Below are positions 3,569 to 48,533 of a DNA stretch of 64,000 nucleotides, one piece after another (position 1 is the stretch's first letter; the number at the start of each line of letters is the position of its first letter). The stretch lies in NCBI GenBank assembly GCA_029261855.1, contig JAJDAN010000031.1, forward strand, positions 124,001 through 188,000, read 5' to 3'. Both the position numbers and the translations under genes were made by a program. Below the pieces are notes generated by a model. That model made no database searches, had not been told where the DNA came from, and was given only the letters and a program-made list of their open reading frames with translations. The stretch is from Deltaproteobacteria bacterium (lineage in GTDB: Bacteria; Myxococcota_A; UBA9160; UBA4427).

Positions 3569-4189
3569 ATGCCGAGACGCAAGCCGCGAGTTCGCCTGGG
3601 AAGAGACGAAGCACGACGCGCCATTCTCGAGGCTGCCGAGAAGCGACTCCGCGAGGGCGGGCCCGAGGCCGTGCGCGTCCAACATGTCGCCGCCGACCTC
3701 GGCATCACCGACGCCGCCATCCACCACCACTTCGGCAGTCGCCAGGGTCTGCTCGAAGCCCTGTTGCGCTTCGGCGGACGACGCATCCGCGACGAGTTGG
3801 ACGCCATCCTGCAGGCCTGGGACGGCGAGCCCGCGGGTCTCGAACGCGTCGCCGAGCGCATCGCGGACGCCTACTCGGTGCAGGGTCATGCCCGGCTCGC
3901 CCTGTGGCTTTCGCTTTCGGGCTGGCAGCCCACGAGCGGCGGCCTCTTCGAACCGCTCGTCGACGCGGTCCATCGCGCGCGTCTGCAGGCCGCTCGAGGC
4001 AACGGCTCGCCCCGCCCCCGCCGGCAAGACACGCAGTACGAGGTCGCGCTGTTGAACGTCGCCCTCGCCGCCGAGCCCCTCTTCGGGCCGGGCTTCCTGC
4101 GAAGCGTCGGTCTCGACGGAGAACCTTCCACCCAGGAGGGCTTCCGGCGTTGGCTGGTGCGGCGACTCGCGGGGCTCTTGACCCCGTAG
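3569..4189 (+). CDS. TetR-family transcriptional regulator
   Basis: 206 residues. The N-terminal helix-turn-helix is clear: ILEAAEKRLREGGPEAV, then VQHVAADLGITDAAIHHHFG, then SRQGLLEALL (residues ~14-65), the standard TetR DNA-binding domain. The remaining ~140 residues form the variable helical ligand-binding domain. The gene is divergent from the alpha/beta hydrolase, with a palindromic operator at 3526-3547. Autoregulation and control of the hydrolase are the simplest reading; the ligand is unknown. Confidence 0.88.
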   Translation: MPRRKPRVRLGRDEARRAILEAAEKRLREGGPEAVRVQHVAADLGITDAAIHHHFGSRQGLLEALLRFGGRRIRDELDAILQAWDGEPAGLERVAERIADAYSVQGHARLALWLSLSGWQPTSGGLFEPLVDAVHRARLQAARGNGSPRPRRQDTQYEVALLNVALAAEPLFGPGFLRSVGLDGEPSTQEGFRRWLVRRLAGLLTP

Positions 4190-35408: not shown

Positions 35409-35515
35409 TCGCCAACGGATCGGCGTTCAGTGGTTTGCGGCGACCTGGCACACTGCTGCTGAACACCTGGGATTCCCGCGATTCTACCACGCGCCAGTAG
35501 GCCCAGCGTTGGCGA
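35409..35515 (-). repeat. Degenerate attC-like remnant
   Basis: The ends TCGCCAACG (35409-35417) and CGTTGGCGA (35507-35515) are exact complements and contain core-site-like GTTGGC. GGATCGGCGTTCAG next to the first end, and GATTC/CTACCACGC in the centre, match the clear attC at 46683-46814. At 107 bp it is shorter than the 132-136 bp of the intact sites, so it is probably decayed. Confidence 0.5.
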
Positions 35516-35652
35516 GTCCGACTACAACGGCTTCAGACGGCTCCCTCGAGCGGCCCGGCGGTGGCGCGCGTGGCACTTCTTGAAACCCCCACCTTCGATC
35601 GGAACGAGCCGGCGGTCGTGAACGACAGCGCCTCGTTCGGCGGCGCCCGAAG

Positions 35653-36909
35653 CTACGGAACTCTCGGATACAGCTGCGCGATGTACTCGACGTCGGTTTT
35701 CGAAAGACCCGGGTCCGGGAGGATACCGTTCTCAAACGGTGCCTTTAGGAGGCCCGCGTCGAACGGGTACATCATGATGGAATTCGCATCGAACGGCTTC
35801 GCCACCGCGTAGTCATCGGCAGTGTACTTGCGAACGAAGTTCTCATAGATCTGCTCGCGGGACCAGCGATTCGGCGGGCCCGCCATCTGTTCGTAGATTG
35901 CGCGCTCGTCCCATTCGATGCCGTTCAGCGGATTCTGATGCTCATGAAGAAGCCCCAGGGCGTGCCCCAGGTTGTGCAGGAGCGTATCTCGATCATTCAC
36001 AATCGACCATCCGAAGTTCATGGTTGGCTCGCTCCCCGGGGCAACGGCCAAGGCATCGGTGCCCACATAGGACCAGCTTCCTTCTCCCTGCGCAAAGGCC
36101 ACTTTGATCTGTGCGGATTCAGAATCATCGAAGACAAACCTGATGTTCGCGTGCTGACTCCACTCCTGCGCAGCATCCTTGACCGCTTCATGTTCGTCGC
36201 GTGCACCACCCAGGAAGCGCACGTGCAGGGTGCTCCCCGTCTCCCAGAGCTTGTGGGAACGACGTCCCTTCCCCGTGACGCCGACGGTCGTGACCGTGCT
36301 GCGCACGGTCGCCGTGCCGTCCGGGGAAATCGATAGCGTCTCAGCGACTACGAGGACCTTGTCTTGCGTCTTGAGTATCAGGTCGAGAGCCTGCTTCGCC
36401 GAACCGGCAGCGGATTGCACCTCGGTGCGTAGCGCTCCCACTGCCGCGACGGTCGCGTTGATCTCAGCGTGCTTCGTCCGAAGATCCTGCTGCTGCGCGA
36501 GTATTGCTCGTTCGGCAGCGCCAACTCTCTCAACCTGCTCGGCGACAGTCGCCCCGTCAGCCTCGACTTCGCGGCGGAGTTCGTCCATGTCCCGCACGGT
36601 GCTCTTCAGGTCAATACCGAGGAAGTAGACCCCAGCAACCGCGAAGAGCCCTAGAAGCGAGAGGGATACCTTCGCGAATCGCACCAGGTCGCGATCCAGG
36701 ACGTAGACGACCTTCTGCCCATCTTGACTCGGAGCCTCCGACTGGCCCAGCTCCGCCCCGCAGTGCTTGCATCGCCGGGCGTGTAGGTTGATGGCCTCCA
36801 GGCAGAACGGGCATGTTGCGGGACGAGGAGTGGCGCGCCCCTCGGCACGGGTTGCTTCATCGCGAGCGACACCGTCTGCCCCTTCGGGACCAGTCTGTCC
36901 ATCAGTCAT
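35653..36909 (-). CDS. Membrane-anchored zinc-ribbon, coiled-coil and astacin-like metalloprotease-fold protein, catalytic Glu lost
   Basis: 418 residues. CPFC (33-36) and CKHC (47-50) form a zinc ribbon, a transmembrane helix spans ~80-98, a coiled coil ~105-180, and the C-terminal half has a metzincin fold. In the zinc site the motif reads HNLGHALGLLHE: His312, Asn313, His316, His322. The glutamate that activates water in HExxH is Asn. The Met-turn SIMMYP (~377-382) and HEHQNP are kept. So zinc binding may persist while classical catalysis should not. It may be a decoy, a binding protein or a scaffold. Confidence 0.78.
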   Translation of the reverse strand: MTDGQTGPEGADGVARDEATRAEGRATPRPATCPFCLEAINLHARRCKHCGAELGQSEAPSQDGQKVVYVLDRDLVRFAKVSLSLLGLFAVAGVYFLGIDLKSTVRDMDELRREVEADGATVAEQVERVGAAERAILAQQQDLRTKHAEINATVAAVGALRTEVQSAAGSAKQALDLILKTQDKVLVVAETLSISPDGTATVRSTVTTVGVTGKGRRSHKLWETGSTLHVRFLGGARDEHEAVKDAAQEWSQHANIRFVFDDSESAQIKVAFAQGEGSWSYVGTDALAVAPGSEPTMNFGWSIVNDRDTLLHNLGHALGLLHEHQNPLNGIEWDERAIYEQMAGPPNRWSREQIYENFVRKYTADDYAVAKPFDANSIMMYPFDAGLLKAPFENGILPDPGLSKTDVEYIAQLYPRVP

Positions 36910-37028
36910 AGGTTGCCTCCAAGAACTGCGTGGCCAGTGCGAACTGCCCTGCCTTCGGCCACTCTTCGTCTAGTTCATCAACCCCCCGCCTTTGCGGGCA
37001 GGATCGACGAGCAGTCGAACCCTTGCAC

Positions 37029-37106
37029 TGCGACGAGGCGGCGGCGCTGTGCAGGAACCATCCTGCGGCGCGGGACGGGAAGATCGTGATCCGTCAGATG
37101 TTCTGA
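37029..37106 (+). pseudogene. 3' fragment of a YCII gene
   Basis: The 25 codons CDEAAALCRNHPAARDGK... ending in TGA at 37104-37106 are almost identical, codon by codon, to the last 25 codons of the intact YCII gene at 34162-34515. No 5' part of the gene precedes it; the homology starts abruptly. It is a truncated duplicate that cannot encode a protein. Confidence 0.7.
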
Positions 37107-37142
37107 CGTTCCCCGCGGTCCTACTCGGACGGACGGCCGTGC

Positions 37143-37802
37143 TCACGGCTCTCCGAGCGGGCGCTGTGCGGCCGCAGCGCCCGCATTCGTGGGCGGGTGT
37201 TCCGCGCGGAATCCGACGCGGTCGGCGTACTCCGGGGACACAGGAGGCAGTACGTCGTCCGCAGTGAAGGGCTTCGCATCGGGCCCGTGCGCGCGGAGGA
37301 CATAGCGATCAGAATCGATGCGGCTGTAGTAGAAGTGGTGGATATGTGGATTCGACTTCGCCGTGTAGTCCCAATCCACGCCCAAGCGACCAAGCTCGTC
37401 GTCGAGTCGTGTGATCTCTATCGGGTACTGCCCTCGTGTGAGCTTGAAGTACTCCAGGGCCCAGACGGTTTCGAGTAGCTGATTCTCTGTTACAGACCTG
37501 GACGCACGACTGCGTGGCTTGTTCAGGACCTGGAACGCCACCACCCAGGAATAGAGTGCTTGGGCATTCAGAGCCAGCCCGATAACTCCAAGGATGACAA
37601 GCGGCCTCCCGCGGCGTCGCCACCCACGCCAGACGCCCCGAAGGACCACGGCGAAAGCTGCCAGCAGGCAGACGCCGTACGCGGTCGGGAACTCCCAAGG
37701 CAGCTGTGCCATTGGGGAGGCCAGGGCGACGCCGGCGCCCACGTAGTAGGCCCAGTCCCATCTCGGGTCGCCGGGTGCGTGATCTTCCGCGGCTGCAAAC
37801 AC
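37143..37802 (-). CDS. Membrane protein with pseudopilin-like C-terminal segment
   Basis: 219 residues. Four hydrophobic stretches fall in the first ~110 residues (VGAGVALASPMAQLPW, AYGVCLLAAFAVVLRGVW, LVILGVIGLALNAQALYSWVVAFQVL). The C-terminal half, GQYPIEITRLDDELGRLG to DRYVLRAHGPDAKPFTADDVLP, resembles the globular end of type II secretion major pseudopilins (GPDGKxxTADD). Its start codon follows closely after an attC-R'-like stretch (GCTAGGT on its own strand, 37808-37814 region), so it may be a cassette gene. Confidence 0.6.
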   Translation of the reverse strand: MFAAAEDHAPGDPRWDWAYYVGAGVALASPMAQLPWEFPTAYGVCLLAAFAVVLRGVWRGWRRRGRPLVILGVIGLALNAQALYSWVVAFQVLNKPRSRASRSVTENQLLETVWALEYFKLTRGQYPIEITRLDDELGRLGVDWDYTAKSNPHIHHFYYSRIDSDRYVLRAHGPDAKPFTADDVLPPVSPEYADRVGFRAEHPPTNAGAAAAQRPLGEP

Positions 37803-37994
37803 TCCCGCTACCTAGCGGACCCGGCGCTCAGCTGCGAGCACCGGCCGAGAAGTTGAAGACACCATCGCAAGCACGAAGGGATTGCCGCTGCGAGGATCCA
37901 GGAAGTCGAAGATCATCCCGACCTGGCCCCGACGAACACGGTCCAAACGTGCCGAAGTACAGGCTCCAATGCGCCACTGCTCATCGAATCGCCA

Positions 37995-39473
37995 TCAAGC
38001 GGCCTCGTCCGGGGGGCCGGCCGCAATGGGAAGCGCCGCGACGCCGTGGTCGCGAACCCAGCCGGTCCACCACGCGACCCCTTCGTCGCCTTCCGCGAGG
38101 CGCGCCGCGACGGCGAAGGGCTGGAGCACGGCATCGCCGCGTCGCACCGTCACCACGTCTCCCACGTCCGCGCGCACCGTCCAGCCATCACCGGCGAGGG
38201 CGCAGAGGATCCCCGCGCCCAACGGGCCGGTGAGGATCTGGGGCACGTATTCGCCCGGGATCTGGACGTCTTCGCCATGGAAGCGTCGAGCAAGCTCTTG
38301 TCCGCGGTCGCGAACCAGCACGGGAAGATCGCCGAGCGTGGCGTCGGCCACGCTGTCGCGGAGCGCCGCAGCCTGGCGCTGCCATCCTGGCATGAAGACC
38401 CGCTCGGTGACATCGCTCCAGGAAATGCGCTCGAAAGTCGCGTCCGCGCTGGCGAGGAAAGCGATCAGTGCGGTCTCGCAGGCATCCACGTCTCCCAGGA
38501 GCGCGATGGCTCGGCGCGAGTCGTCGGGCACCGTGGGGGCTTCTTCTGCGATGCGCTCGACGGCGGAGATGCGCTCACCGAGGGGCGGATGGCTGTCATA
38601 GCGGTCGGCCTCGGCGGTGAGCGCGTGCTTCAGGGCCTCGTCCACTTCCTGCTCGATCCTCGTCGACCGCAAGAAGCGGTCGAAGCCACCGGCGAGCGGC
38701 GCGCGGAAGCCTGAGTTCAGCACCGGAGACGCTTCCTGCTGCCAGTACGCGTCGTAGGCAGGCGCCAGCGCGTGGATCTTCTTGAGACCCTCGATGAGGC
38801 TCTGCGCGCCGATCACCATCGCGGCGAGCTGGTCGGCCGTGAATTCCTGAGCGCGGGAGATCGCCTGGGTGACGCCCAGGAAGAAGTTCCCGTACGCGCG
38901 GAACGGGAGATGAAGCCAGCCTTCCTCGCCCAGGCTCTCGAGGGTGCGGCCGATTGCGGAGCGCGTCTTGTATATCCAGGGCCCAAGCCGGGTATCGCCG
39001 CCGTGGTAGTGGCCGAACTCGTGAGCCAGAACGGCTTCGAATTCCCTCACGCCAAGCACCTGCATCAACGGAAGACCCAGTCCCATCACGCGCTGGCTGC
39101 CGATCCCCATGACACCGCCCCGGCTCGCAACCCAGGCATTCATGTCCGGAATCAGGAAGACATCGCGCGGCATCTCTTGACCAGTCGCATTCGCCAGGGC
39201 CGCGAGCTTCTCGAAGAGCTCTGGCTGCGCGTCGGACGTCAACCGCGGGCCAGGTTCCTCGAAGCGGTCGCGGCGCGGCAGGATCGCCCAAGCGATCATC
39301 GCGGCACCGATCACGCAGCCGAGCGTGATGCGCAGATGAACGCGGCCCGCGTAGACCCATTCCGCGTACGGTATGGCAAGGAGCCCCACCACCATCCCTA
39401 TCGCGAGCAGGTAGAACCCCACCATGAGCGCAAGCGCGGCGAACGAGCGCGCCGCGAGTGACTTCTGAGCCAT
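37995..39473 (-). CDS. M48-family membrane metalloprotease (HtpX/Ste24-like)
   Basis: 492 residues from ATG 39473, with AAGGAG 6 nt upstream. Two transmembrane helices lie near the N-terminus (~10-35 and ~43-62). EFEAVLAHEFGHYHGGDTRLG is the complete HExxH zinc site and AQEFTADQLAAMVIG holds the third, glutamate, ligand. SHPPLGERISAVERI is the conserved C-terminal M48 block. An extra ~150-residue C-terminal domain is of unknown role. Active membrane protein quality-control protease by inference. Confidence 0.87.
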   Translation of the reverse strand: MAQKSLAARSFAALALMVGFYLLAIGMVVGLLAIPYAEWVYAGRVHLRITLGCVIGAAMIAWAILPRRDRFEEPGPRLTSDAQPELFEKLAALANATGQEMPRDVFLIPDMNAWVASRGGVMGIGSQRVMGLGLPLMQVLGVREFEAVLAHEFGHYHGGDTRLGPWIYKTRSAIGRTLESLGEEGWLHLPFRAYGNFFLGVTQAISRAQEFTADQLAAMVIGAQSLIEGLKKIHALAPAYDAYWQQEASPVLNSGFRAPLAGGFDRFLRSTRIEQEVDEALKHALTAEADRYDSHPPLGERISAVERIAEEAPTVPDDSRRAIALLGDVDACETALIAFLASADATFERISWSDVTERVFMPGWQRQAAALRDSVADATLGDLPVLVRDRGQELARRFHGEDVQIPGEYVPQILTGPLGAGILCALAGDGWTVRADVGDVVTVRRGDAVLQPFAVAARLAEGDEGVAWWTGWVRDHGVAALPIAAGPPDEAA

Positions 39474-39732
39474 CGAGTTCTCCTTCGCGTGGAGAAGCCC
39501 TGCGGTGGGTCGCCGGGCGCGAAATCCTGCGTTTGGTCGCCTACTGTCCGGTCGCAGGTCGGCGGTCATTGTCGCGCCTTCGCGCGGTGCAGATCAAGCA
39601 GCGATTCTCTTCCAGGTGGAGTTTGCGAGCCGCGGCCCCGGCGTGATGACCCGAAAGACGACGATGCCCCATATGAGGGTGGCGACGCCCGTCGGCGGCG
39701 GCGCCGCTGTTAGGCCAGGACCATGCCTCGGC
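39474..39732. other. Intergenic region, no gene recognised
   Basis: About 260 bp between the M48 gene start and the IS110 remnant. GTTAGGC at 39709-39715 resembles an attC core heptamer, but no partner heptamer is visible at the expected ~130 bp distance. No conserved reading frame is seen. Confidence 0.35.
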
Positions 39733-39938
39733 ACAGCAGCGGTGCCACGCACCGCGCTCTACCTCGCGGCCATGATCGGGACCCGCTTCAACCCCACCCT
39801 CAAAGCCGTGTACCAGCGCATGCTCGCCGCAGGGAAGCCACCCAAGGTGGCGGTCATCGCGTGTTGGCCAGGAAGCTCCTCACCATCCTCAATGCCATGG
39901 TTCGCGACGGCGCAGACTGGGGCCAGGCGACCGGCTAG
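39733..39938 (+). pseudogene. IS110/IS1111-family transposase C-terminal remnant
   Basis: The frame reads RTALYLAAMIGTRFNPTLKAVYQRML, AAGKPPKVAVIA, the typical C-terminal transposase-20 domain of IS110-family enzymes. The last piece, RKLLTILNAMVRDG, continues in a shifted frame to TAG at 39938, so there is at least one frameshift. Only the last ~65 residues of a ~340-residue transposase remain. It ends directly next to a truncated attC (39940-39970). Confidence 0.8.
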
Positions 39939-39939
39939 G

Positions 39940-39970
39940 GGTCAAAATCGATCACGGTTGCTTGTTAGCC
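39940..39970 (-). repeat. Truncated attC site beside the IS110 remnant
   Basis: Read on the minus strand the segment starts GGCTAAC (R''-like) followed by AAGCAACCG and stops after ~30 bp at the IS110-remnant end. The R'' heptamer is followed by the start of an attC L'' region; the rest of the site is missing. It sits just downstream of the HNH gene, where its attC should be. Confidence 0.6.
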
Positions 39971-39974
39971 AGCG

Positions 39975-40889
39975 CTACGCACCAAGGTAGACCTGCTCGT
40001 TGTGCCAGACAATGTTGTCCTCGGAGAGAGCCTGTTCTGGGCTGCCGGGCTCGCGAAGGTCGCGGCCGTGAAGTGCGTAGTACTCGCGACCATTGTGGAA
40101 TTCTTCGCGGATTCTGGTGCTCACTTCGACGTGATGATCGGTCGTGATTGTCAAGTATCCGCGATCGAAGAGCGTGTGCATATCGCTCCGGAGCAACAGC
40201 CCGTTCTCGATTGAGTGGACACCGCCTGAGGCGTACGGCCGAACATGTGCTGCCTCGAGCACCGGCAACACTCTCTCGCCGGTCAGCGCACACCGCCTTT
40301 CGTAGGCGTCCGTAACTACGACGCGGAACGAACCCTGACCAAGTCGGGGTCGGATCGCGATGAGGCTCCCGTATCGTTCCGCGTCCGAATCTCGGAGCTG
40401 AAGCTCATGGAGCGCCCCTTGAAGCTGCCGATAGAGAGTCGCCCCGGGCTCCTGGACGAGGTCGTAGGTCTTCCCCTGCACGATGTTCGGGCTCCAGTCG
40501 GCAGGAACTGGCACCCAGCGGTGCTCGGGCAGAAAGAAGGGCTGCGTGAGAAGGATGCAACCAACCGTGAAGTCTTCACGGTCTTCTGTCGAGGTACGCC
40601 GATACTTCAGCGTTCGTGTTCTCATCTCCTGAAGCGACCGCACGCCGTTGGCGATGTCGAAGGATGACCAGGCAAGACTGATTGGCAACAGACTCGAGTG
40701 AGCGAAGATGCCGCCGCCCACTATGAAGTTGCGAGGGCTGTGGAGCTTGAACAGAAAGAGGTCGCCGGGGGTGAGCGCTTTGAACTGTCGCGAACCGCCC
40801 GGTTGCCAGAAATTCACCTCTTCGAGGTCGGGCTGGTGCCTAAGCAGGTCGAACCACTCGAAGTCTGTGACGCCTATGTATGACTTCAT
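39975..40889 (-). CDS. HNH endonuclease (cassette gene)
   Basis: 304 residues from ATG 40889. The N-terminal domain (MKSYIGVTDFEWFDLLRHQPDLEEVNFW to LFKLHSPRNFIVGGGIF) resembles PUA/SRA-like modified-base readers. The C-terminal end carries EAAHVRPYASGG, SIENGLLLRSDMHTLFD, the HNH_2 metal/catalytic site seen in 'putative restriction endonucleases' (COG3440). This fits a modification-dependent nuclease. It is the only gene of its cassette, followed by a truncated attC. Confidence 0.82.
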   Translation of the reverse strand: MKSYIGVTDFEWFDLLRHQPDLEEVNFWQPGGSRQFKALTPGDLFLFKLHSPRNFIVGGGIFAHSSLLPISLAWSSFDIANGVRSLQEMRTRTLKYRRTSTEDREDFTVGCILLTQPFFLPEHRWVPVPADWSPNIVQGKTYDLVQEPGATLYRQLQGALHELQLRDSDAERYGSLIAIRPRLGQGSFRVVVTDAYERRCALTGERVLPVLEAAHVRPYASGGVHSIENGLLLRSDMHTLFDRGYLTITTDHHVEVSTRIREEFHNGREYYALHGRDLREPGSPEQALSEDNIVWHNEQVYLGA

Positions 40890-40913
40890 GAGCGGCGCAT
40901 TGCACGCCCTCGT

Positions 40914-41049
40914 GCTGGACGGATCTGCTCTCCAGCGGCGTGGCAACAGCGCCGGCAGACCGCTGGGACAGCCTGGTTCGAAGCCAGGACGCTACCAGAA
41001 GAGATGGCGGCAGGCTGTTGCCAAGTCCGTTCGCAACAGCTTGTTGCGC
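40914..41049 (-). repeat. attC site (degenerate cores)
   Basis: 136 bp; ends GTCCAGC/GCGCAAC on the minus strand. Inner arms GGCAACAGC and GCTGTTGCC are exact complements, and GTTCGAAGCC/GCTACCAG in the middle match the other sites. Core heptamers deviate from GTTRRRY but the length and inner blocks place it in the same family. Confidence 0.7.
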
Positions 41050-41096
41050 GGCACCTAGCTGGCGGTAGCGCTCTGCGTGCGCTTGAGCCCGGAGGG

Positions 41097-41801
41097 TCAA
41101 GTCGCTCTGCCGTGCCTCCGCTCGAGGCTCTGAACGTGTTCTATATCCGTCCGGCCACTGATGGCGAGGCGCGCAGTCTCAAGCCGGCCAACGCAAAACT
41201 GCACTCGATTGAGGGACATGACCTCGACGGTCTGTTCGCGCACGTATTCAACGAACCGGGAGAGGCTAAACACTCCCTGAGGAGTCTCTGTCTTGAACTC
41301 CGCATCGCCGCTGAAGACGACGACCGACTTGACGGCGCCGGGCGGTAGGAAGTCAAGGAGGCCTTGCACAGCCCGAACGTGCCGCATGTTCTGGAGTATT
41401 GGGTTCTGGAACTTGAACCTGCGCTTGAACAGGACTTGAGTCCAATTCGCCTGCTTCGCGCCGGCGAAGATCCAACCCTTGTAGTGCTTGGTCTCGATTA
41501 CGAATACGCCAAACCGAGACACGAGGATGTGATCAACCTGGGTTGTGCCGTCATTCAACTCAAGAGTGACGTGATTCATCAGGTGATAGTCAGGAGGACC
41601 GAAGTTCGTCCGCGCGACGTGGGACAGGAGTGCCTCGCCGCGGTTCTGGAATTCGGAGGCACGGGAGGCGCGAGAGGCACAGTACCGGCCAATGACGAAG
41701 CCAGTCGCTAGTGCAAGAAGGATGTAGAGCACGGCCCAGTCGTCCTGCTTCCAGTCGCGAAGAAGCGCCGACAGGCGCTCAACCACAGTGTCGTACGACA
41801 C
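41097..41801 (-). CDS. NERD-domain nuclease-related membrane protein (cassette gene)
   Basis: About 234 residues, start uncertain (GTG 41801 chosen; an upstream TTG would reach into the attC). WAVLYILLALATGFVIGRYCA is an N-terminal transmembrane helix. The NERD domain follows: LNDGTTQVDHILVSRFGVFVIETKHYKGWIF, with the D and ExK of a PD-(D/E)xK nuclease fold. NERD proteins are thought to act on nucleic acids; several occur in phage defence. Sole gene of its cassette. Confidence 0.8.
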   Translation of the reverse strand: MSYDTVVERLSALLRDWKQDDWAVLYILLALATGFVIGRYCASRASRASEFQNRGEALLSHVARTNFGPPDYHLMNHVTLELNDGTTQVDHILVSRFGVFVIETKHYKGWIFAGAKQANWTQVLFKRRFKFQNPILQNMRHVRAVQGLLDFLPPGAVKSVVVFSGDAEFKTETPQGVFSLSRFVEYVREQTVEVMSLNRVQFCVGRLETARLAISGRTDIEHVQSLERRHGRAT

Positions 41802-41843
41802 TACCGAGATTCCCTGCGCTAGCTCACCGAGACCCAGCGCGCT

Positions 41844-41978
41844 GCCCAACGGATCGGCGTTCAGCGGCCAGCAACAGCGCTGACCGGATCCGATCCTGCC
41901 TCCTCAGTGTGCCGCCAGACGGCCACGATGGTCAATTGAACCGAGCTGTTGCTGGTCCGGTTCAACGATTTGTTAGGC
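41844..41978 (-). repeat. attC site
   Basis: 135 bp. On the minus strand it starts GCCTAAC (41978-41972, whose TAA is the stop codon of the nuclease gene upstream) and ends GTTGGGC (41850-41844). Inner arms CCAGCAACAGC and GCTGTTGCTGG are exact complements. Typical R'', L'', L', R' order. Confidence 0.85.
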
Positions 41979-42776
41979 AGAAACCTTGGGAGCGCCTGGC
42001 TTAGACGATTGCTCAGGCCCCTTCTTTGTGCTCCGCTTTCGCAACTTTCGCAACGACGCCCTTGCAACGCGCTTCTTGGCCTCACTGGCGACATCACCTT
42101 CCAAAAGGTCACGCTTCAAAACGTCCGGAAGGATCCGTGCAAGCTCTTCTGTTGTCACGCCGCAATCGGGCGCGAGGCGTTTCAACTCCCTGCGGATGAC
42201 ACTCAGGACCGGATCAGAGGCGACGAGCGCGCCCACGATAAATCGATTGACGACTTGCACATGCTCGTGAAACGCCTCCATCGCGGATTGGCCAATGCCC
42301 TCCTTGGAGAGGAGGTAGAGAGTTTCGTGGGTTTCCGATTTCCGAGGAGAAAGATCGAGAAACTCAAAGACGCACACTTCTTCGTGGTGGACGGGCTGCT
42401 CGAACCTGATGCGGTAAATCTCCCACCGCAGTCCGTTCGTGAGAACTACCCACGGAATGCCCTGATTTGCGCCGTAATTCACGGCCTGACGGAGGTGATT
42501 CTCCCGAAGAGTCAGGCCAATCGCCTTCACCTCAATCAGGAACTTCAACTTCCCGTCTTGCTTTACCGCAAGGTCACAGAAAGTTCCTCGAATCGCCTGC
42601 TCGCTCGTGATGTCGGTGTACTTGTCGTAGCCAAAGACGGCTGCAAGAACATCCGTAATGATGGTGACCGTATCAGATTCGTTGACGTCCCGATCCTTCG
42701 CGTCGGCAAGAACGCGCTGGAATGTGCCAACCGTCTTTGAAAAACGATCTGCGACTCTCTTGGGCACCTTTGCCAT
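41973..42776 (-). CDS. HsdR_N-type restriction-related nuclease-domain protein (cassette gene)
   Basis: 267 residues from ATG 42776. TFCDLAVKQDGKLKFLIEVKA (D68, E82, K84) is the PD-(D/E)xK signature of the type I restriction enzyme R-subunit N-terminal domain (PF13588), but the helicase part is absent. LRQAVNYGANQGIPWVVLTNGLRWEIYRIRF is the next conserved block. Its stop TAA is part of the attC R'' box. Sole gene of its cassette; a stand-alone defence nuclease is plausible. Confidence 0.84.
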   Translation of the reverse strand: MAKVPKRVADRFSKTVGTFQRVLADAKDRDVNESDTVTIITDVLAAVFGYDKYTDITSEQAIRGTFCDLAVKQDGKLKFLIEVKAIGLTLRENHLRQAVNYGANQGIPWVVLTNGLRWEIYRIRFEQPVHHEEVCVFEFLDLSPRKSETHETLYLLSKEGIGQSAMEAFHEHVQVVNRFIVGALVASDPVLSVIRRELKRLAPDCGVTTEELARILPDVLKRDLLEGDVASEAKKRVARASLRKLRKRSTKKGPEQSSKPGAPKVSA

Positions 42777-42793
42777 CGAGTGGTCTCCTTTCC

Positions 42794-42907
42794 GCCTAAC
42801 GGATATGCGGTTCAGCTGCGCCCGGCAGCGCTGACCACCAACGCTGGAGCACTGCACCCGCCGCCAGAACGGTATCACGCCTCGATTGGAGCACGCTGCT
42901 AGGTGTC
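42794..42907 (-). repeat. attC site, R' side part, interrupted by the IS3 element
   Basis: The first 114 bp (plus-strand order) of an attC: GTTAGGC on the minus strand at 42800-42794. Inner sequence GGTTCAGCTGCG resembles the other sites. It is cut at GTC (42905-42907), which is repeated after the IS. Together with 44119-44139 it reconstructs to 135 bp. Confidence 0.85.
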
Positions 42908-42967
42908 TGATCTTGCCCCGATAAGTGGACACCTAGAATAGGTCCAAACGGACCATCGAGGTGCTCC

Positions 42968-43267
42968 ATGCCCAAGAGGAAAGAACCCACCCGGCTGCAT
43001 CGCTCCTTCACGCCCGAGTTCAAGCGAGACGCTGTGAGGCTCGTGCAGGATGGGAAGACGTTGACCGAGGTCGCCCAGAACCTCGGCATCGCGCGGAGTC
43101 TCCCGCAGTACTGGAAGAAGCAGCTCGAGAAGAGCTCGCGGCTGAAGAAGGAGCTCCGCGATGCGCGTGAAGAGCGGGACATCCTGAAAGAAGCACTGGC
43201 CTACTTCGCGGACGACCAGAAGCGAAGTTCCGGTTCGTCCAGGAGCATCGGGGGACCTTCCGAGTAG
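42968..43267 (+). CDS. IS3-family transposase OrfA
   Basis: 99 residues. RSFTPEFKRDAVRLVQDGKTLTEVAQNLGIARSLPQYWKKQL is the HTH of transposase family 8; LKKELRDAREERDILKEALAYFA is the leucine-zipper-like helix. It normally yields an OrfAB fusion by -1 frameshifting into orfB, which lies in the -1 frame. Confidence 0.9.
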   Translation: MPKRKEPTRLHRSFTPEFKRDAVRLVQDGKTLTEVAQNLGIARSLPQYWKKQLEKSSRLKKELRDAREERDILKEALAYFADDQKRSSGSSRSIGGPSE

Positions 43268-44085
43268 GCATGATGTGTCGAGTCCTGAAGGTCTCCCGCA
43301 GCGGCTGCTACGCTTGGCGGGGACGTCAACCGAGTCGTCGCGAAGTCGAGGACCAAGGCTTGGTGGATCGGATCCGCGTCATCCATGCCGAGAGTCGGGA
43401 GCCGTACGGCTCTCCGCGCATTCATCGCGCGCTTCGCCACGACGAGATCTGGGTCGGTCGCAAGCGAATCGCTCGCTTGATGCGCTGAGAGGGCCTCTCG
43501 GGCTGTTCCGCGCGGCGGTTCAAGCGCACGGCAACGGTTCGCGCGGAACTCCCGGCTCCCGGGAACCTGCTCGATGGCGACTTCTCCAGCGAAGCTCCGA
43601 ACCGGGTCTGGGTCGGCGACGTGACCCAGATCCGAACGCGGGAGGGGTGGCTCTTCCTCGCCGTGCTGCTCGATCTCTTCTCACGCAAGGTCGTTGGCTA
43701 CGCGACCTCGCCACATCCGCGACAAGGTCTCGTACTCGAGGCCCTGGACGCTGCCGTCGCGTCGCGCCATCCCGAGGCCGGTCTGATCCATCACACGGAT
43801 CGAGGCGGGGTCTACTTCAGCACGGAGTATCAGGGACGACTCGACGATCACGACATGCAGTGCAGTGCCAGCAAACCCGGGCGCTGCGTCGACAACGCGG
43901 TGGCCGAGAGCTTCTTCCACACGCTGAAGACCGAGTGGATCTATCACTTCGACTTCTACACCCGAGACGAAGCGCGCCTTGCGATCTTCGACTACGTCGA
44001 GACGTTCTACAACCCGTCCCGGCTTCACTCGACACTCGACTACCGATCACCCAACGAGTATGAAAGAATGAAGGCTGCCGCTTAA
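43225..44085 (+). pseudogene. IS3-family transposase OrfB, interrupted by an in-frame stop
   Basis: In frame -1 to orfA the product begins KFRFVQEHRGTFRVGMMCRVLKVSRSGCYAW, continues to KRIARLMR and meets TGA at 43486-43488 (codon 88). The same frame goes on EGLSGCSARRF to the DDE domain: WVGDVTQI (D1), HTDRGGVYFS (D2), NAVAESFFHTLKTE (E), ending at 44085. The single stop most simply arose as CGA to TGA, making this copy inactive unless recoded. Confidence 0.82.
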
Positions 44086-44115
44086 CCCCGTGTCCACTTT
44101 ACCGGGGCAGGATCC

Positions 44116-44139
44116 GTCGGCTGCAAGCGCTGGTTAGCC
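44116..44139 (-). repeat. attC site, R'' side part after the IS3 element
   Basis: GTC (target duplication) then GGCTGCAAGCGCTGGTTAGCC. On the minus strand it opens GGCTAAC, the R'' box of the attC whose other part is 42794-42907. The GTTAGCC heptamer matches the R' of the previous attC (45264-45396), as expected for one cassette. Confidence 0.8.
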
Positions 44140-44333
44140 AGCTTATTGCGTGAGAAGCATGTTCGTGATGCGAGCAAGCGGACGGCGTGCGGGCCGGGTG
44201 TCCAGCCCAAGATTCCGGTCCAGCCGATTGGCAGCAGCAGCGTGACGTCGAGCCGTTCGGCCGACCGCGCGAGCGGTGGATGCGTGGGCGCACCTTGTTC
44301 GCAGGGCGACACGGTGTGCGGTCGGAGGTCGAG
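44140..44333. other. Non-coding part of a cassette
   Basis: 194 bp between the attC and the stop of the methyltransferase gene. No conserved frame or hairpin is evident. Confidence 0.35.
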
Positions 44334-44969
44334 TTACTCGCTCGCCGCCTTGCGGCCCAGCATGCAATGAGCACCGAACCGCACCGCGTCGTTACGCTCG
44401 GTCCGGGTCTCGACGAACCCCGCATCGCGGAACGCGGCTTCGAGATCGGCAAGCTCGTGGAGATGAAACCCGTCCGTTTGGGCCGGCTTGAAGCGCATGA
44501 AGTTCTCCCGGACCGGGAACGTCACTGCCGCCAGGCCGCCGAGCTTGAGCACGCGGTGCATTTCCTTGAACACCGTGCCAGGATTACCAATCACGTACAT
44601 CGTGGCGACGGTGCACGCCTTGTCGAACGCCCCATCGTCGAACGGCAATGAACCGCCCGCGGCCGCATGTAGTGTCACTCGCCCTTCGGAGATGGCCCGT
44701 GCGTTCCTCCTCGACGCCATCTCGATCGCCGTCTTGGAGATCTCGGCTCCCCTGACGTGTCCCTTGGACGTCCGTTCAGCGAGTAGCTCGATGTTCGCCC
44801 CGTTTCCGAAGCCCACCTCCAGGAGGTCATCATCGGGCTGCACCTCCATCAGGTCCGCAGTCCAACGAGCGTGCTCGATCGTTTTGGGCGTCATCCAGGC
44901 AAACAGTGCCTTGCCGAGCAACCCTCTGGGGTGCTGCAGCTGCTTACCAATCACACCGATCAATCCCAT
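44334..44969 (-). CDS. SAM-dependent methyltransferase (cassette gene)
   Basis: 211 residues. DDLLEVGFGNGANIELLAERTSKGHVRGAEIS is motif I/II, GGSLPFDDGAFDKACTVATMYVIGNP motif III, and MHRVLKLGGLAAVTFPVRENF the following strand. It matches the UbiE-like small methyltransferases common in integron cassettes. The substrate is unknown. It overlaps the start of the small gene upstream by 10 bp. Confidence 0.83.
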   Translation of the reverse strand: MGLIGVIGKQLQHPRGLLGKALFAWMTPKTIEHARWTADLMEVQPDDDLLEVGFGNGANIELLAERTSKGHVRGAEISKTAIEMASRRNARAISEGRVTLHAAAGGSLPFDDGAFDKACTVATMYVIGNPGTVFKEMHRVLKLGGLAAVTFPVRENFMRFKPAQTDGFHLHELADLEAAFRDAGFVETRTERNDAVRFGAHCMLGRKAASE

Positions 44970-45247
44970 TCGGTCGCCTCGCTTTGCTCGATTGTCGGCG
45001 CCGCGGCATCTGCTACGCGTACACCGTGAACGCGAGAAAGGCCCCGAGCAGGGTCCAGAACGTGCCGATCACTCGCGTCATGGTCGGCCTCAACAAGTCT
45101 TGCCCGATCCCTGAACTCCTCATAGATCTGGTCGGCGGTCGCGCCGATGGCGACAGAACCCGCGCGACCTCGTTCCACGACCAGTGCTTTGTCCAGGGGC
45201 GTCGCCGCTTGCAGAGTAATGATCAACGCCAGGGCATTGTGTCGCAT
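44960..45247 (-). CDS. Small possibly secreted protein (cassette gene)
   Basis: 95 residues. MRHNALALIITLQAA looks like a signal peptide; ALVVERGRAGSVAIGATADQIYEEFRDRARLVEAD resembles a periplasmic domain seen in small unknown proteins. The last 35 residues look less ordered and a frameshift is possible. Same cassette as the methyltransferase, upstream of it. Confidence 0.5.
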   Translation of the reverse strand: MRHNALALIITLQAATPLDKALVVERGRAGSVAIGATADQIYEEFRDRARLVEADHDASDRHVLDPARGLSRVHGVRVADAAAPTIEQSEATEWD

Positions 45248-45263
45248 TCGTCACTCATTGTCT

Positions 45264-45396
45264 GGCTAACGGATCGGGCTTCAGCTGCACCAGCCAGCGC
45301 TGACCGGCCTCGCCGAAGCCAGGGAAGTTCGATGCCAAGGCTACCAGACGCCGGAACGCCTAGCTGGCTGGTGTCAGCTGCAAGCCCTTGTTGGGC
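45264..45396 (-). repeat. attC site
   Basis: 133 bp. Minus-strand ends GCCCAAC (R'') and GTTAGCC (R'). Inner arms GGGCTT-CAGCTG-CACCAGCCAGC and the complementary arm carry two unpaired bases, the extrahelical positions typical of attC. Central GTTCGATGCC/GGCTACCAGAC as in the other sites. Confidence 0.86.
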
Positions 45397-45426
45397 GGCC
45401 CGTCGCACTGCACCGAGCCGCGTCGG

Positions 45427-45942
45427 CTACCAGGTCGCTGTGCCGACGACGGTTCGATTGCCACTGGTGTTCGCAAAGTACTGGTGCGCGACTCCGTCGA
45501 GAGGTTCAGGGTGGAAAACTCGGGCTCTGAACGTCGCTGACTCTCCAGTCGGAACCATCCGAGTGGATGTGCGGCCATCGAACTGGACAAGCCAGTGCTC
45601 GTTGTCGTCGGACTTCTCAATGGAGTGAGCCCAGTCCGCGACGTTTCGTGAGGTTGATTCGATCACGGGCTTGGCCGGGAACGCCGAGATAGGAAGCTCG
45701 ATAGCGAAATGACCCATGTGATCACCGCCGTTGTTGGCTGGCGTCGCCTTGACGGAGACGACATAGGTGAGAACCGACTCGGCCACAGGAGACCCGCCTT
45801 GCGTTTGAGACGACGTCTCAACGCCGACCGCGAAGTACGGGGGAGGGCCCGGATCGGGTGCATCTCGATTCCACTCGGAGACCCACCCGGCCGCCAGATA
45901 CCCGAGCGCGAACGCAAGAAGCGTGTTCGCGATACTGCCCAT
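45427..45942 (-). CDS. Membrane-anchored protein of unknown function (cassette gene)
   Basis: 171 residues from ATG 45942. One N-terminal transmembrane helix (IANTLLAFALGYLAAGW), then a beta-rich domain (FAVGVETSSQTQGG, FAIELPISAFPAKPVIES, ESATFRARVFHPEP). Such single-helix, beta-domain proteins are frequent in cassette arrays. No homology recognised. Confidence 0.65.
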   Translation of the reverse strand: MGSIANTLLAFALGYLAAGWVSEWNRDAPDPGPPPYFAVGVETSSQTQGGSPVAESVLTYVVSVKATPANNGGDHMGHFAIELPISAFPAKPVIESTSRNVADWAHSIEKSDDNEHWLVQFDGRTSTRMVPTGESATFRARVFHPEPLDGVAHQYFANTSGNRTVVGTATW

Positions 45943-45973
45943 GCGCTTTGACCGCTTCGACTCAGCCAAGGCC

Positions 45974-46108
45974 GCCCAACGGATCAGGCGCTCAGCTGCG
46001 GCCAACAGCGCCTCCGAGGCGGAGCGAGCACCAGCTGTTGATGCCAGAAGGCTACCAAACCCCAATTGAAACGCGCTGTTGGACGTCAGCTGCAGCGCCT
46101 TGTTGGGC
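45974..46108 (-). repeat. attC site
   Basis: 135 bp with GCCCAAC/GTTGGGC ends on the minus strand. CTCAGCTGC and GTCAGCTGCAGCGCC pair; the centre contains GCCAGAAGGCTACCAAAC, as in the sites at 47306 and 47753. Full R''-L''-L'-R' order. Confidence 0.87.
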
Positions 46109-46122
46109 GGCGCGCGCATCAG

Positions 46123-46665
46123 CTAGGCGGTGTCCTCGGTACCTTCCCCGGGAGTCACGGAGTTGGCGGTCACAGGTTTCCAGTAGTCACCGTCATCGCG
46201 TGGTCCTTGCGAAAGGACCTGGTCGATCAGGGTCTGAAAATCAGGAATCACATAGGATCGGCCGATCCGCTGCCACCACGCCCTCGACCATTGTGGGATA
46301 AAGATCGCGTTGATGATCACAAGGCGCGCTTCCCAGAGCGCGGAGGGCTGTAGACCTCGATGCACATCGAGAAAGTCCTGTTGGAGCACCAACAAGTACG
46401 AGAGAAACCAGTGTTCGATCTGCGCCATTTCCGTCGGCGTTAGATCTGGATCGGGGCTCGCGTAGATCTTGCTTATCGAGCCTGCAGTCGAAGGATTCAT
46501 CATCGCGAGTGAGATCTGTTGTAGTGAGGAGGTCGATTCGCGCGCGCTCTGCTGGCGAAGTGCGAAAGTGCTCTGCCGGAGCTGGAAGATCAGAAACCCA
46601 AGGGTGACTACTACGGCAGCTGCGCCGACGACCTCGCCGATTGCTCCAATCGCTTCCCAGTTCAT
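46123..46665 (-). CDS. Membrane-anchored helical protein (cassette gene)
   Basis: 180 residues from ATG 46665. MNWEAIGAIGEVVGAAAVVVTLGFLIFQLRQST is a common opening in environmental proteins of unknown role: one N-terminal transmembrane helix followed by a helical domain (IEHWFLSYLLVLQQDFLDVHRG, ARLVIINAIFIPQWSRAWWQRIG). Sole gene of its cassette. Confidence 0.72.
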   Translation of the reverse strand: MNWEAIGAIGEVVGAAAVVVTLGFLIFQLRQSTFALRQQSARESTSSLQQISLAMMNPSTAGSISKIYASPDPDLTPTEMAQIEHWFLSYLLVLQQDFLDVHRGLQPSALWEARLVIINAIFIPQWSRAWWQRIGRSYVIPDFQTLIDQVLSQGPRDDGDYWKPVTANSVTPGEGTEDTA

Positions 46666-46682
46666 CGAGTTCTCACCGCGCC

Positions 46683-46814
46683 GCCCAACGGATCGGCGTT
46701 CAGCGGCGTGCGGCGACTTGCCGGATGACTCCGTGAACACCTTGGATGACCGCGATCCTACCACGCCGCATACCGGCGCGGCGTGAGCACGTCCGCTGCA
46801 ACGGCATGTTGGGC
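46683..46814 (-). repeat. attC site
   Basis: 132 bp with GCCCAAC/GTTGGGC ends on the minus strand. CGGCGTTCAGCGG and CCGCTGCAACGGC are complementary. The centre CGATCCTACCACGCC differs from most of the other sites but matches the remnant at 35409-35515. Confidence 0.86.
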
Positions 46815-46825
46815 GGCGAGCGGGC

Positions 46826-47023
46826 CTATGGACCGGGACGAGATTTCTCCGTGTCACACTCTTCGCGTTCGTAGTCGTAGCTCCCACCGGAGTCGAGGCA
46901 CGCATCAACCCTGGCAGCGCGAATAGCGGGACGTGCGCAGAGCAACCCCGACAGCAGAGCAACGGCCAGCATGATTCCGGGGACGAGCCACTGGAGGTAG
47001 GATTCGCGCTCAAAGTGCCTCAC
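46826..47023 (-). CDS. Small single-helix membrane protein (cassette gene)
   Basis: 65 residues. LQWLVPGIMLAVALLSGLL is a transmembrane helix; ARVDACLDSGGSYDYEREECD is a short extracytoplasmic tail with two cysteines that may form a disulphide. Second of two genes in this cassette, just before the attC. Unknown role. Confidence 0.55.
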   Translation of the reverse strand: MRHFERESYLQWLVPGIMLAVALLSGLLCARPAIRAARVDACLDSGGSYDYEREECDTEKSRPGP

Positions 47024-47052
47024 GAGGAGCCTCCGGCGTTTGACTCGCGGGT

Positions 47053-47286
47053 CTACTCGAGGGGCATCACGACTACGTCGGGCATGTCATCGGCCCAACC
47101 AGGCCAACTATCCCGCAAATGGAGATGGTCTACCGGCCCCGCCTCTATCGCCGCCGCGGAGGCGAGCAGGTGGGTGGCAACTCGGCGCAAGAACTCGGCA
47201 CTGGCTTGGAAGGTGACCTCAGCAAGCTCCGCAGGACCGTCGTCGACCCGGTCGCCACGAGGGTAGCCATAGGCCAGATTCGACAT
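47053..47286 (-). CDS. Small soluble hypothetical protein (cassette gene)
   Basis: 77 residues, MSNLAYGYPRGDRVDDGPAELAEVTFQAS at the start, then an amphipathic helix (EFLRRVATHLLASAAAIE) and a short strand (DVVVMPLE). It could be the antitoxin-like or first gene of a two-gene cassette, but no family is recognised. Confidence 0.5.
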   Translation of the reverse strand: MSNLAYGYPRGDRVDDGPAELAEVTFQASAEFLRRVATHLLASAAAIEAGPVDHLHLRDSWPGWADDMPDVVVMPLE

Positions 47287-47305
47287 GTCGCCTCCGATTC
47301 TCGCC

Positions 47306-47439
47306 GCACAACGGATAGGCGCTCAGCTGCGTGGCCCAGCGCCACCGAAGACAGCTCGAGCACCATGGTTCGAAGCCAGAAGGCTACCAAACGCGAGGAA
47401 CTCCAGATGGGCCACGTCTGCTGCTGCGCCTTGTTATAC
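47306..47439 (-). repeat. attC site (near-identical to the next)
   Basis: 134 bp with GTATAAC/GTTGTGC ends on the minus strand. GGATAGGCGCTCAGCTGCG and the whole central part (GGTTCGAAGCCAGAAGGC) agree with the site at 47753-47887 almost base for base. Confidence 0.86.
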
Positions 47440-47640
47440 CGCGGGCGTTCTACCGGCCCATGACTGGCGCCACCGGGTGCGCTCGCAAAGCGAGAAGAAG
47501 GACCTGGCAACAGGGCATCGAGAAGCTTGGTGTCGTGCCGGGACGGAGCCACGCGAGGGAGCAGCCCGCAAGGGTTTGCAGCTGGATTGGACGCTGCAGC
47601 GGAGCCGGTCTTGCCTGGCGAGGTGCTTCCGCGTATTCAC
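47434..47640 (-). CDS. Possible small ORF in a cassette, stop supplied by attC
   Basis: 68 residues, Arg- and Ser-rich, no recognised domain; its TAA (47434-47436) lies in the R'' box of the attC, as is common for true cassette genes. Composition is not convincing and other frames are open here, so a non-coding cassette is also possible. Confidence 0.3.
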   Translation of the reverse strand: MNTRKHLARQDRLRCSVQSSCKPLRAAPSRGSVPARHQASRCPVARSFFSLCERTRWRQSWAGRTPAV

Positions 47641-47752
47641 CGGGAAGCCGCGTCCGGCATGGTGTGCGGGTTGCCTTCACCAAACCCACCGGCCAGCGCT
47701 AGAGCGCTTGCGAAGCGAGGGCCAGCGGTTCCCCTTGTATCACGTCCCCGCG

Positions 47753-47887
47753 GTATAACGGATAGGCGCTCAGCTGCGTGGCCCAGCGCCACCGAAGACA
47801 GCTCGAGCACCAAGGTTCGAAGCCAGAAGGCTACCAAACGCGAGCGACTCCCTGATGGGCCACGTCTGCTGCTGCGCCTTGTTAGAC
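47753..47887 (-). repeat. attC site (near-identical to the previous)
   Basis: 135 bp with GTCTAAC/GTTATAC ends on the minus strand. Its GTTATAC is the exact complement of the R'' (GTATAAC) of the attC at 47306-47439, the expected signature of a cassette inserted by core-site recombination. Confidence 0.87.
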
Positions 47888-48288
47888 AGTCGACGCGCGT
47901 ACCTGCCCCCAACGGCGACCCGCCTGAGAGAGGAAGCTCTAGGCCCGAACGGGGGGTGCCACGGCTGCCAGCTCGCGCCCTGGCAACGGACCAGGGGCAA
48001 GCGAGGACCTTCGCGACGAGTGGCACGCGTGAACACACAACCCGCCGCTCGCGCTGCGACAAGCTGCGCTGCGAGGCGCGACCCGGAACACAGCAACGGG
48101 CCATCGAAGCGGAGCTTGCAAGCGGGAAGCCCGCGAGTGGTGTGGCCCAGCGCGCGACTCGCGGCGCGTCGCGGGAAGCAACGACGAACGAAAGAGCAGA
48201 GCGGCGCGAAGCTCAGGCCGTGCCGACTGCACCGAGTGCGCGGCTCTTCAGAACTGAGAGCCAAGTCCGCGGACCGAGAGTCGTCGCT
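47888..48288. other. First cassette of the array, no convincing gene
   Basis: 401 bp between the attC at 47753-47887 and the terminal core-like site. The minus-strand frame expected to end at the attC stop is closed after ~15 codons; longer open frames are Arg/Ser/Ala-rich and read through the attC. Probably a non-coding or decayed cassette. Confidence 0.4.
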
Positions 48289-48295
48289 GTATAAC
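48289..48295 (-). other. Array-proximal core-site-like heptamer GTTATAC
   Basis: GTTATAC on the minus strand, preceded by GCAGCTCATTAACTA. It marks the upstream end of the array. It could be a decayed attC right end or the core of an attI; no integrase gene follows within the window (next gene: a thiolase). Confidence 0.4.
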
Positions 48296-48533
48296 TAGTT
48301 AATGAGCTGCAGAAACCGTAGCCCGCTCGCTGGATATCGCGCTGCCCCATTCGGGTTATCCGACGCATCGTATCCGCCTCGTTCCGCGCTGCAACTCCGC
48401 GAACTCGCGTGGTTCCGGTCCGTTCTCGCTGCGCAAATGCGGCGGTCTGATGGCGCAGAACATGTCGCCATATTCGTGATAGCGCGCACGCCTCTTCGGA
48501 TCGCGTACATCGGGCCCACGACCACCCTCCCCG
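48296..48533. other. Intergenic spacer between array and thiolase gene
   Basis: 238 bp after the thiolase stop. No gene, hairpin or attC-like element recognised. Several in-frame stops in all frames compatible with a gene start. Confidence 0.4.

What the first reader, a model, noticed from the sequence alone, without database searches (positions are those of the whole stretch)
39975..42776. Three consecutive cassettes encode nuclease-domain proteins (HNH, NERD, HsdR_N)
In array order on the minus strand: a stand-alone HsdR_N nuclease (41973-42776), a membrane-anchored NERD protein (41097-41801) and an HNH enzyme with a PUA/SRA-like N-domain (39975-40889). Each is alone in its cassette. All three domains occur in phage-defence or restriction systems. 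Recent work links sedentary integrons to stores of defence genes, so these may be single-gene anti-phage systems, with the HNH one possibly specific for modified DNA.
Basis: partly seen in the sequence, partly recalled or inferred. Interest (0 to 1): 0.66.

Follow-up and report, generated by a model that had tools for sequence, protein, structure and literature searches.

The report
Three nuclease genes in integron cassettes
A bacterial gene-cassette array carries three neighbouring single-gene DNA-cutting enzymes; one belongs to a family that viruses dormant in bacteria keep right behind their immunity repressor, which suggests the array has banked a phage-versus-phage weapon, though none has been tested.

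Summary
Three consecutive minus-strand cassettes encode an HsdR_N-type, a NERD and an HNH protein with intact catalytic residues. The array lies away from the genome's only full integrase. Corrections: the attC between NERD and HNH is decayed (56 bits; intact sites 80-149), and the outer attC sites are broken by insertion elements.

HNH: a widespread family (at least 542 loci). Its model shows a PUA-superfamily domain (closest ASCH) plus an HNH domain like TagI and VcaM4I, the plan of modification-dependent restriction enzymes.

HsdR_N: a stand-alone nuclease without helicase or methylase, in 2 of 377 genomes of its phylum but at 40 viral-contig loci. In 17 of 34 viral records a repressor-type gene lies upstream on the same strand within 1.5 kb (random 1.1 +/- 1.0). 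I read it as a prophage exclusion nuclease captured as a cassette.

NERD: also a cassette in a related genome; relatives are common on conjugative plasmids. Role open.

The defence reading is supported for two of three by architecture and context only. Nothing was assayed.

The parts
41973..42776 (-). Stand-alone HsdR_N-type PD-(D/E)XK nuclease, 267 aa (P0003): nuclease domain about 30-140, helical C-terminal part about 145-250
41097..41801 (-). NERD nuclease-like protein with one N-terminal hydrophobic segment (P0002); true start probably 41837-41849
39975..40889 (-). PUA-superfamily (ASCH/EVE-like) + HNH endonuclease, 304 aa (P0001)
41844..41978 (-). Intact attC of the HsdR_N cassette (115.8 bits)
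40914..41049 (-). Decayed attC of the NERD cassette (55.6 bits; R'' GCGCAAC, R' GTCCAGC)
42794..42907 (-). Lower part of the attC upstream of the HsdR_N cassette, split by an IS; the upper part is 44116-44139
42908..44115 (+). IS3-family-like insertion sequence inside an attC (HTH_Tnp_1, rve, rve_2; inverted ends; 3-bp target duplication GTC)
44116..44139 (-). Upper part of the IS-split attC (R'' side)
39964..39970 (-). R'' half-site of the broken attC of the HNH cassette
39723..39938 (+). Transposase-like remnant (IS110/IS1111-like by recall) next to the HNH half-site
   Evidence: no Pfam hit in the frame scanned
45264..45396 (-). attC of a neighbouring cassette of the same array (117.1 bits)
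45974..46108 (-). attC of a neighbouring cassette (121.8 bits)
46683..46814 (-). attC of a neighbouring cassette (80.3 bits)
47306..47439 (-). attC (147.4 bits)
47753..47887 (-). attC of a ~547-bp repeated cassette without a clear gene (149.3 bits)
35410..35538 (-). Weak far-end attC (28 bits)

Best explanation
The locus is part of an integron cassette array without an integrase beside it, in which three unrelated single-gene nucleases lie side by side. (1) The HsdR_N protein is a member of a family carried by temperate phages next to their repressor gene; it most likely works in the lysogen as an exclusion nuclease that cuts the DNA of other incoming phages, and an integron picked it up as a cassette. 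It is a PD-(D/E)XK enzyme without the helicase, methylase or specificity parts of a restriction system, so it cannot spare self DNA through a cognate methylase; choice of target must come from its helical C-terminal part, from DNA structure or foreign modification, or from activation at infection (inferred). (2) The HNH protein most likely flips a modified base of foreign DNA into a pocket of its PUA-type domain, which lets the HNH domain cut. (3) The NERD protein is a membrane-anchored nuclease-like protein that may act on DNA entering at the inner membrane (weakest). Shown: sequences, predicted folds, catalytic residues, cassette borders, genomic context. Inferred: DNA cutting, target choice, anti-phage effect.
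For: Domains and intact catalytic residues. HNH model: pLDDT 91.8; N-domain closest to ZmASCH (Z 12.7, rmsd 3.0, 137 aligned), then other PUA-type folds (2eve Z 8.4, THYN1 with 5mC DNA Z 8.0, YTH Z 7-8); HNH part to TagI (Z 14.2, rmsd 2.5, 111 aligned) and VcaM4I (Foldseek 7.5e-10). HsdR_N model: pLDDT 92.4; BpuSI Z 12.1 (rmsd 3.6, 143 aligned), HsdR fragment 3h1t Z 11.8, DrdV Z 11.6, EcoR124I HsdR Z 9.3. 40 viral-contig loci against 2 of 377 genomes of the phylum. Neighbours within 3 genes: HTH_3 in 20 of 142 against 3 of 133 in a control set (p = 2.6e-4); Peptidase_S24 8 and Phage_integrase 9 of 142. HTH_3 upstream on the same strand within 1.5 kb in 17 of 34 records, random placement 1.07 +/- 1.01, maximum 7 in 20,000 draws. 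Its nearest relative, L238, starts 13 bp after a Phage_CI_repr gene (2.9e-12). In Thermus phage Riverbug the relative starts 4 bp after a LexA-like regulator, two genes before the integrase.
Against: No assay. PADLOC has no good match for HsdR_N (best 0.0017) and only the nuclease parts of HNH and NERD match. HsdR_N relatives were looked for mainly in a viral collection; genomes were checked in one phylum only, so the viral link is partly where I looked (the positional test within records does not depend on that). In 13 of 34 records no HTH_3 lies within 1.5 kb. In the Leptospira and Arthrobacter plasmids and in G281 no repressor directly adjoins the relative. The window + L238 pairing has modest support (82/86, not starred). 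PUA folds also bind RNA or small ligands. Other cassettes of this genome are mostly metabolic or unknown. Expression of these inner cassettes is not known. The HNH gene is mostly not in cassettes elsewhere.
Confidence: 0.5

Rival explanations
1. The three adjacent nuclease cassettes are a chance cluster without a common role: HNH as a selfish or house-cleaning endonuclease, NERD as a plasmid-type gene, HsdR_N as a phage relic, in an array that has lost its integrase and is decaying.
For: No full integrase beside the array, decayed and IS-broken attC sites; cassette contents of this genome mostly unrelated to defence. Three given cassettes of 12 are adjacent by chance with probability 0.045, and the trio was picked after the fact.
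Against: All three ORFs are intact with conserved catalytic residues, which is unlike relics.
Confidence: 0.3
2. The HsdR_N family serves the phage itself (regulation of lysogeny, DNA processing, lysogenic conversion), and the cassette copy has another cellular use.
For: It sits beside repressors and recombinases; one relative lies two genes before an integrase.
Against: It also occurs in plasmids and in an integron cassette, away from phage control genes; a HsdR/BpuSI/DrdV-type nuclease domain fits DNA restriction better than regulation.
Confidence: 0.2
3. NERD and HNH are one two-gene unit (the attC between them is dead) that works together.
For: Decayed attC between them. In a Clostridiales genome (L104) a NERD protein, 42% identical over the matched part, is encoded directly upstream of an HNH relative.
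Against: Only 1 of 110 loci with a P0001-type hit has a NERD relative within the fetched flanks; in G088 and G162 the NERD relative has no HNH partner within the fetched 9 kb.
Confidence: 0.1
4. The HNH protein recognises phosphorothioate DNA rather than a modified base.
For: NCBIfam PT-DNA_restrict 5e-21 on residues 185-301; ScoMcrA is among the weaker fold matches.
Against: The NCBIfam match covers the HNH half only and is far below the cut-off (75 of 180 bits); the N-domain is a PUA-type fold, and a separate sulphur-binding domain was not seen in the model.
Confidence: 0.08

Closest known systems
VcaM4I (EVE-HNH) and TagI (SRA-HNH) modification-dependent restriction endonucleases
   Same: N-terminal PUA-superfamily domain followed by a C-terminal HNH domain, similar length, same H/N positions (PMC7897488 passages)
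   Different: N-domain closer to ASCH than to EVE in the model, without a Pfam family in any of 52 relatives at a curated level; metal-ligand position is H238 where VcaM4I has D250; substrate unknown
HsdR N-terminal nuclease of type I, and N-terminal nuclease of type IIG enzymes (BpuSI, DrdV)
   Same: Same nuclease fold, D...E-x-K and Q-x3-Y residues
   Different: Only 267 aa: no helicase, methylase or specificity part, and no such partner gene in the cassette
Prophage exclusion genes expressed with the repressor (e.g. Fc02 olg1)
   Same: Position in the repressor region; Fc02 olg1 lies upstream of the repressor on the same strand, excludes phages, and has a DEDDh exonuclease-like match (PMC9936078, passages)
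   Different: PD-(D/E)XK nuclease downstream of the repressor; exclusion not shown for this family; here it is in an integron
NERD-domain proteins of defence systems (BREX PglW, MADS MAD6)
   Same: NERD domain
   Different: 234-residue membrane-anchored protein without a kinase part
[quoted passage not shown] 2025, seen only as cited in PMC12409362)
   Same: Small single-gene restriction-like cassettes in an array
   Different: An array without an integrase beside it, in an unnamed species

Membership tests
Integron cassette array without integrase (CALIN) | At least two attC sites in one orientation enclosing short genes | tested here: met
   9 attC hits at E <= 1e-3, all minus strand; genes on the same strand
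Integron cassette array without integrase (CALIN) | No integron integrase next to the array | tested here: met
   The only full IntI is on contig C32; no significant IntI match in the window
PUA-HNH modification-dependent restriction endonuclease | N-terminal PUA-superfamily reader domain | tested here: met
   ZmASCH Z 12.7 (rmsd 3.0, 137 aligned); fold only
PUA-HNH modification-dependent restriction endonuclease | HNH domain with catalytic His/Asn/metal ligand | tested here: met
PUA-HNH modification-dependent restriction endonuclease | Base pocket like VcaM4I P24/W82/Y130 | tested here: inconclusive
   W28, W74, W125 and other aromatics are invariant, but no residue-level superposition of the N-domain was possible
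PUA-HNH modification-dependent restriction endonuclease | Cuts modified DNA only | not testable with these tools
   needs an assay
Type I restriction enzyme, HsdR subunit | PD-(D/E)XK nuclease domain with Q-x3-Y | tested here: met
Type I restriction enzyme, HsdR subunit | SF2 helicase motor and HsdM/HsdS partners | tested here: not met
   267 aa, no helicase match; no HsdM/HsdS family listed among the array proteins (one search lists 25 of 51 families)
Type IIG restriction enzyme | Methylase domain in the same protein | tested here: not met
   no methylase-domain match; 267 aa
Prophage exclusion gene in the repressor operon | Gene downstream of, and in line with, the repressor | tested here: met
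   For the family: 17 of 34 records have HTH_3 upstream, same strand, within 1.5 kb. The window copy itself is in a cassette
Prophage exclusion gene in the repressor operon | Blocks infection by other phages | not testable with these tools
   needs an assay
BREX PglW / MADS MAD6 | NERD plus protein kinase in one long protein | tested here: not met
   234 aa, NERD only

The most novel reading that the evidence does not exclude
The HsdR_N cassette founds a new, widespread family of single-gene prophage exclusion nucleases: a restriction-enzyme nuclease domain freed from its methylase and motor, expressed with the CI repressor in lysogens. Integrons harvest such genes from prophages and bank them next to other DNA-reading nucleases.
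Probability: 0.33. Interest if true: 0.72.

Novelty: new variant of a known kind. Interest (0 to 1): 0.5.

Why it matters
If true, it shows a route by which integrons stock defence genes, from the immunity region of prophages. It also names a family of stand-alone PD-(D/E)XK nucleases that PADLOC-DB 2.0.0 and NCBIfam do not recognise well, with a clean test: one gene, one catalytic mutant, one phage panel. How a nuclease without a methylase partner spares its host would be the open question.

Tried and rejected
The HNH gene as an integron-specific invention was rejected: at least 542 loci in many phyla, and 20 other genomes of the 282 searched in the phylum with near-full-length matches (one with an internal stop). 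HsdR_N as a lost type I or IIG subunit was rejected for lack of the other parts. NERD as part of BREX or MADS was rejected for size. Plasmid context of NERD (4 records viewed) gave no constant partner beyond two related plasmids. NERD in phages: 4 of 50,697 records, none covering 80% of the query. Single-protein viral scans with P0001 and P0003 found nothing; profile scans did. The generic attC scan found, besides the known sites, one weak candidate (L052:4172-4345). Tandem repeats: none. Defence context of HNH: among 109 neighbour proteins of 34 loci, PADLOC at 1e-10 hit 5 HNH and at least 2 type I specificity proteins, against 1 of 64 control proteins. The 183 families counted there overlap on few proteins, so I call this weak. 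A crude motif count gave 4 of 109 against 0 of 64. Literature: (listings) gave no paper on this HsdR_N family as an exclusion gene; PMC8713573 lists an HsdR N-terminal protein among differences of a phage-resistant Campylobacter strain and leaves its role open (passages).

Rows dropped. From A2: L058 (internal stop), L068 and L069 (partial), L070 (HNH half only). Before A3: L119 (stop) and L162 (partial); A3 holds 52 rows, the window and 51 of the 83 usable relatives. From A5: L247, L251, L252, L261, L263, L273 (near-identical), 34 of 40 loci kept. From the HNH control set: 38 of 68 loci usable, 133 of 160 proteins given. From the neighbour set A6: proteins under 85 aa. From A8: 65 of the 69 array ORFs were given, plus 9 from the window. 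A9: 34 of the 80 genome-contig loci, 2 genes each side, proteins of 100 aa or more. Genes for A6-A10 come from a simple longest-ORF caller of mine, which can err.
Full report
Setting. I built an attC covariance model from 12 sites of the window and contig C32. It finds 9 sites in the window at E <= 1e-3, all on the minus strand from 35410 to 47887 (most of them were used to build the model), and 68 in the genome. These lie in a large array at the end of C28, the whole of C10, the start of C32 beside the only full integron integrase (C32:3858-4799), and smaller groups. That C28, C10 and C32 form one integron is inference. The window array has no integrase beside it.

Cassette borders. The HsdR_N/NERD attC (41844-41978) is sound at 115.8 bits. 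The NERD/HNH site (40914-41049) has lost both core boxes (55.6 bits). The attC on the other side of HsdR_N is split by an IS3-family-like element (42908-44115; inverted ends, 3-bp target duplication); joined, it is 135 nt. Past the HNH stop only an R'' half-site is left, beside a transposase-like remnant. So HsdR_N was a single-gene cassette with clear borders, and NERD and HNH now probably travel as one unit.

HNH protein. Pfam sees only HNH-type domains at a convincing level. The AlphaFold model (pLDDT 91.8, 52 rows) has an N-domain whose best matches are ASCH of Zymomonas mobilis (Z 12.7, rmsd 3.0, 137 aligned) and then other PUA-type folds (EVE 2eve Z 8.4, THYN1 Z 8.0, YTH 7-8), and an HNH domain like TagI (Z 14.2, rmsd 2.5, 111 aligned) and VcaM4I (Foldseek 7.5e-10). 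[quoted passage not shown] By analogy the window protein most likely reads a modified base. Which base is unknown, and the pocket was not superposed.

HsdR_N protein. The model (pLDDT 92.4, 35 rows) has the N-terminal nuclease fold of BpuSI (Z 12.1, rmsd 3.6, 143 aligned), an HsdR fragment (Z 11.8), DrdV (Z 11.6) and EcoR124I HsdR (Z 9.3), with D68, E82, K84, Q97 and Y101 invariant. In its own phylum it is rare: 2 of 377 genomes, itself included. A profile scan of IMG/VR gave 40 loci, 34 of them not redundant. Of 142 neighbour proteins within 3 genes, 20 match HTH_3, 8 Peptidase_S24, 9 Phage_integrase and 5 Resolvase. A control of 133 neighbours of HNH hits in the same collection has 3 HTH_3 and 2 Phage_integrase; p = 2.6e-4 for HTH_3. 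The control is other HNH loci, not random genes, so I also tested position inside the records: HTH_3 lies within 1.5 kb in 21 of 34 and upstream on the same strand in 17 of 34, whereas random placement in the same records gives 3.9 +/- 1.8 and 1.07 +/- 1.01. In 10 records a same-strand HTH is backed by an opposite-strand one a few hundred bases farther upstream, the CI/Cro pattern (read). The nearest relative, L238 (60% over the alignment), starts 13 bp after a Phage_CI_repr gene. In Thermus phage Riverbug the order is LexA-like regulator, HsdR_N relative, one gene, integrase. Plasmid relatives in Leptospira and Arthrobacter do not adjoin a repressor, and in G281 the nearest HTH_3 is about 1.5 kb away.

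Mechanism. A gene kept in line behind the repressor is expected to be on in the lysogen, where exclusion genes are found; PMC9936078 reports such activity for Fc02 genes of the regulation region (passages). A nuclease of restriction type without a methylase must find foreign DNA in another way. I favour cutting of incoming phage DNA; activation at infection with cell death is the main variant. None of this is shown.

NERD protein. One hydrophobic N-terminal segment and a NERD domain. A relative at 80% in G088 follows a GTTGGGC box directly and is followed by a decayed attC, so it travels as a cassette; another at 66% in G162 shows no attC near it. Matches up to 50% occur in 1,964 plasmid records, 1,835 of them typed conjugative. 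In L104 (a Clostridiales genome) a NERD gene lies directly upstream of an HNH relative, but that is 1 of 110 loci.

Verdict. The defence reading is plausible for HNH by architecture and for HsdR_N by context, and open for NERD. The HsdR_N family is the part worth a specialist's time.

Noticed in passing
window 48285-48300: The array ends at a sequence (AACTAGTTA) that resembles the integrase-side end of the C32 array (L005 near 3613-3625, read by eye), so the window array may have had its own attI; no significant integrase match is left nearby.
   Followed up: partly
window 47749-48295; L005:228-773, 1546-2088, 2078-2622, 2612-3158: A ~547-bp cassette without a clear gene is repeated in both arrays at 87-90% identity.
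   Followed up: partly
window 42908-44115: An IS3-family-like element inserted inside an attC with a 3-bp target duplication; its second reading frame is interrupted.
   Followed up: partly
L089, L097, L099, L110, L124, L126, L127, L131, L132, L141, L146, L156: In 12 of 110 loci with a P0001-type hit a second HNH coding stretch of about 32-38% identity lies just downstream on the same strand; a recurring HNH pair.
   Followed up: partly
L104:5108-5836: NERD protein with a topoisomerase-type zinc ribbon directly upstream of an HNH relative.
   Followed up: partly
G000 arrays on C28, C10, C32, C42: Among 74 array proteins PADLOC also sees one PDC-M41A protein (3.4e-107) and one TIR effector (7.2e-10); which cassettes hold them was not resolved.
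   Followed up: no
window 35653-36909, 37995-39569, 44334-44969: Other genes of the region: an astacin-like metallopeptidase, an M48 peptidase and a class I methyltransferase.
   Followed up: no
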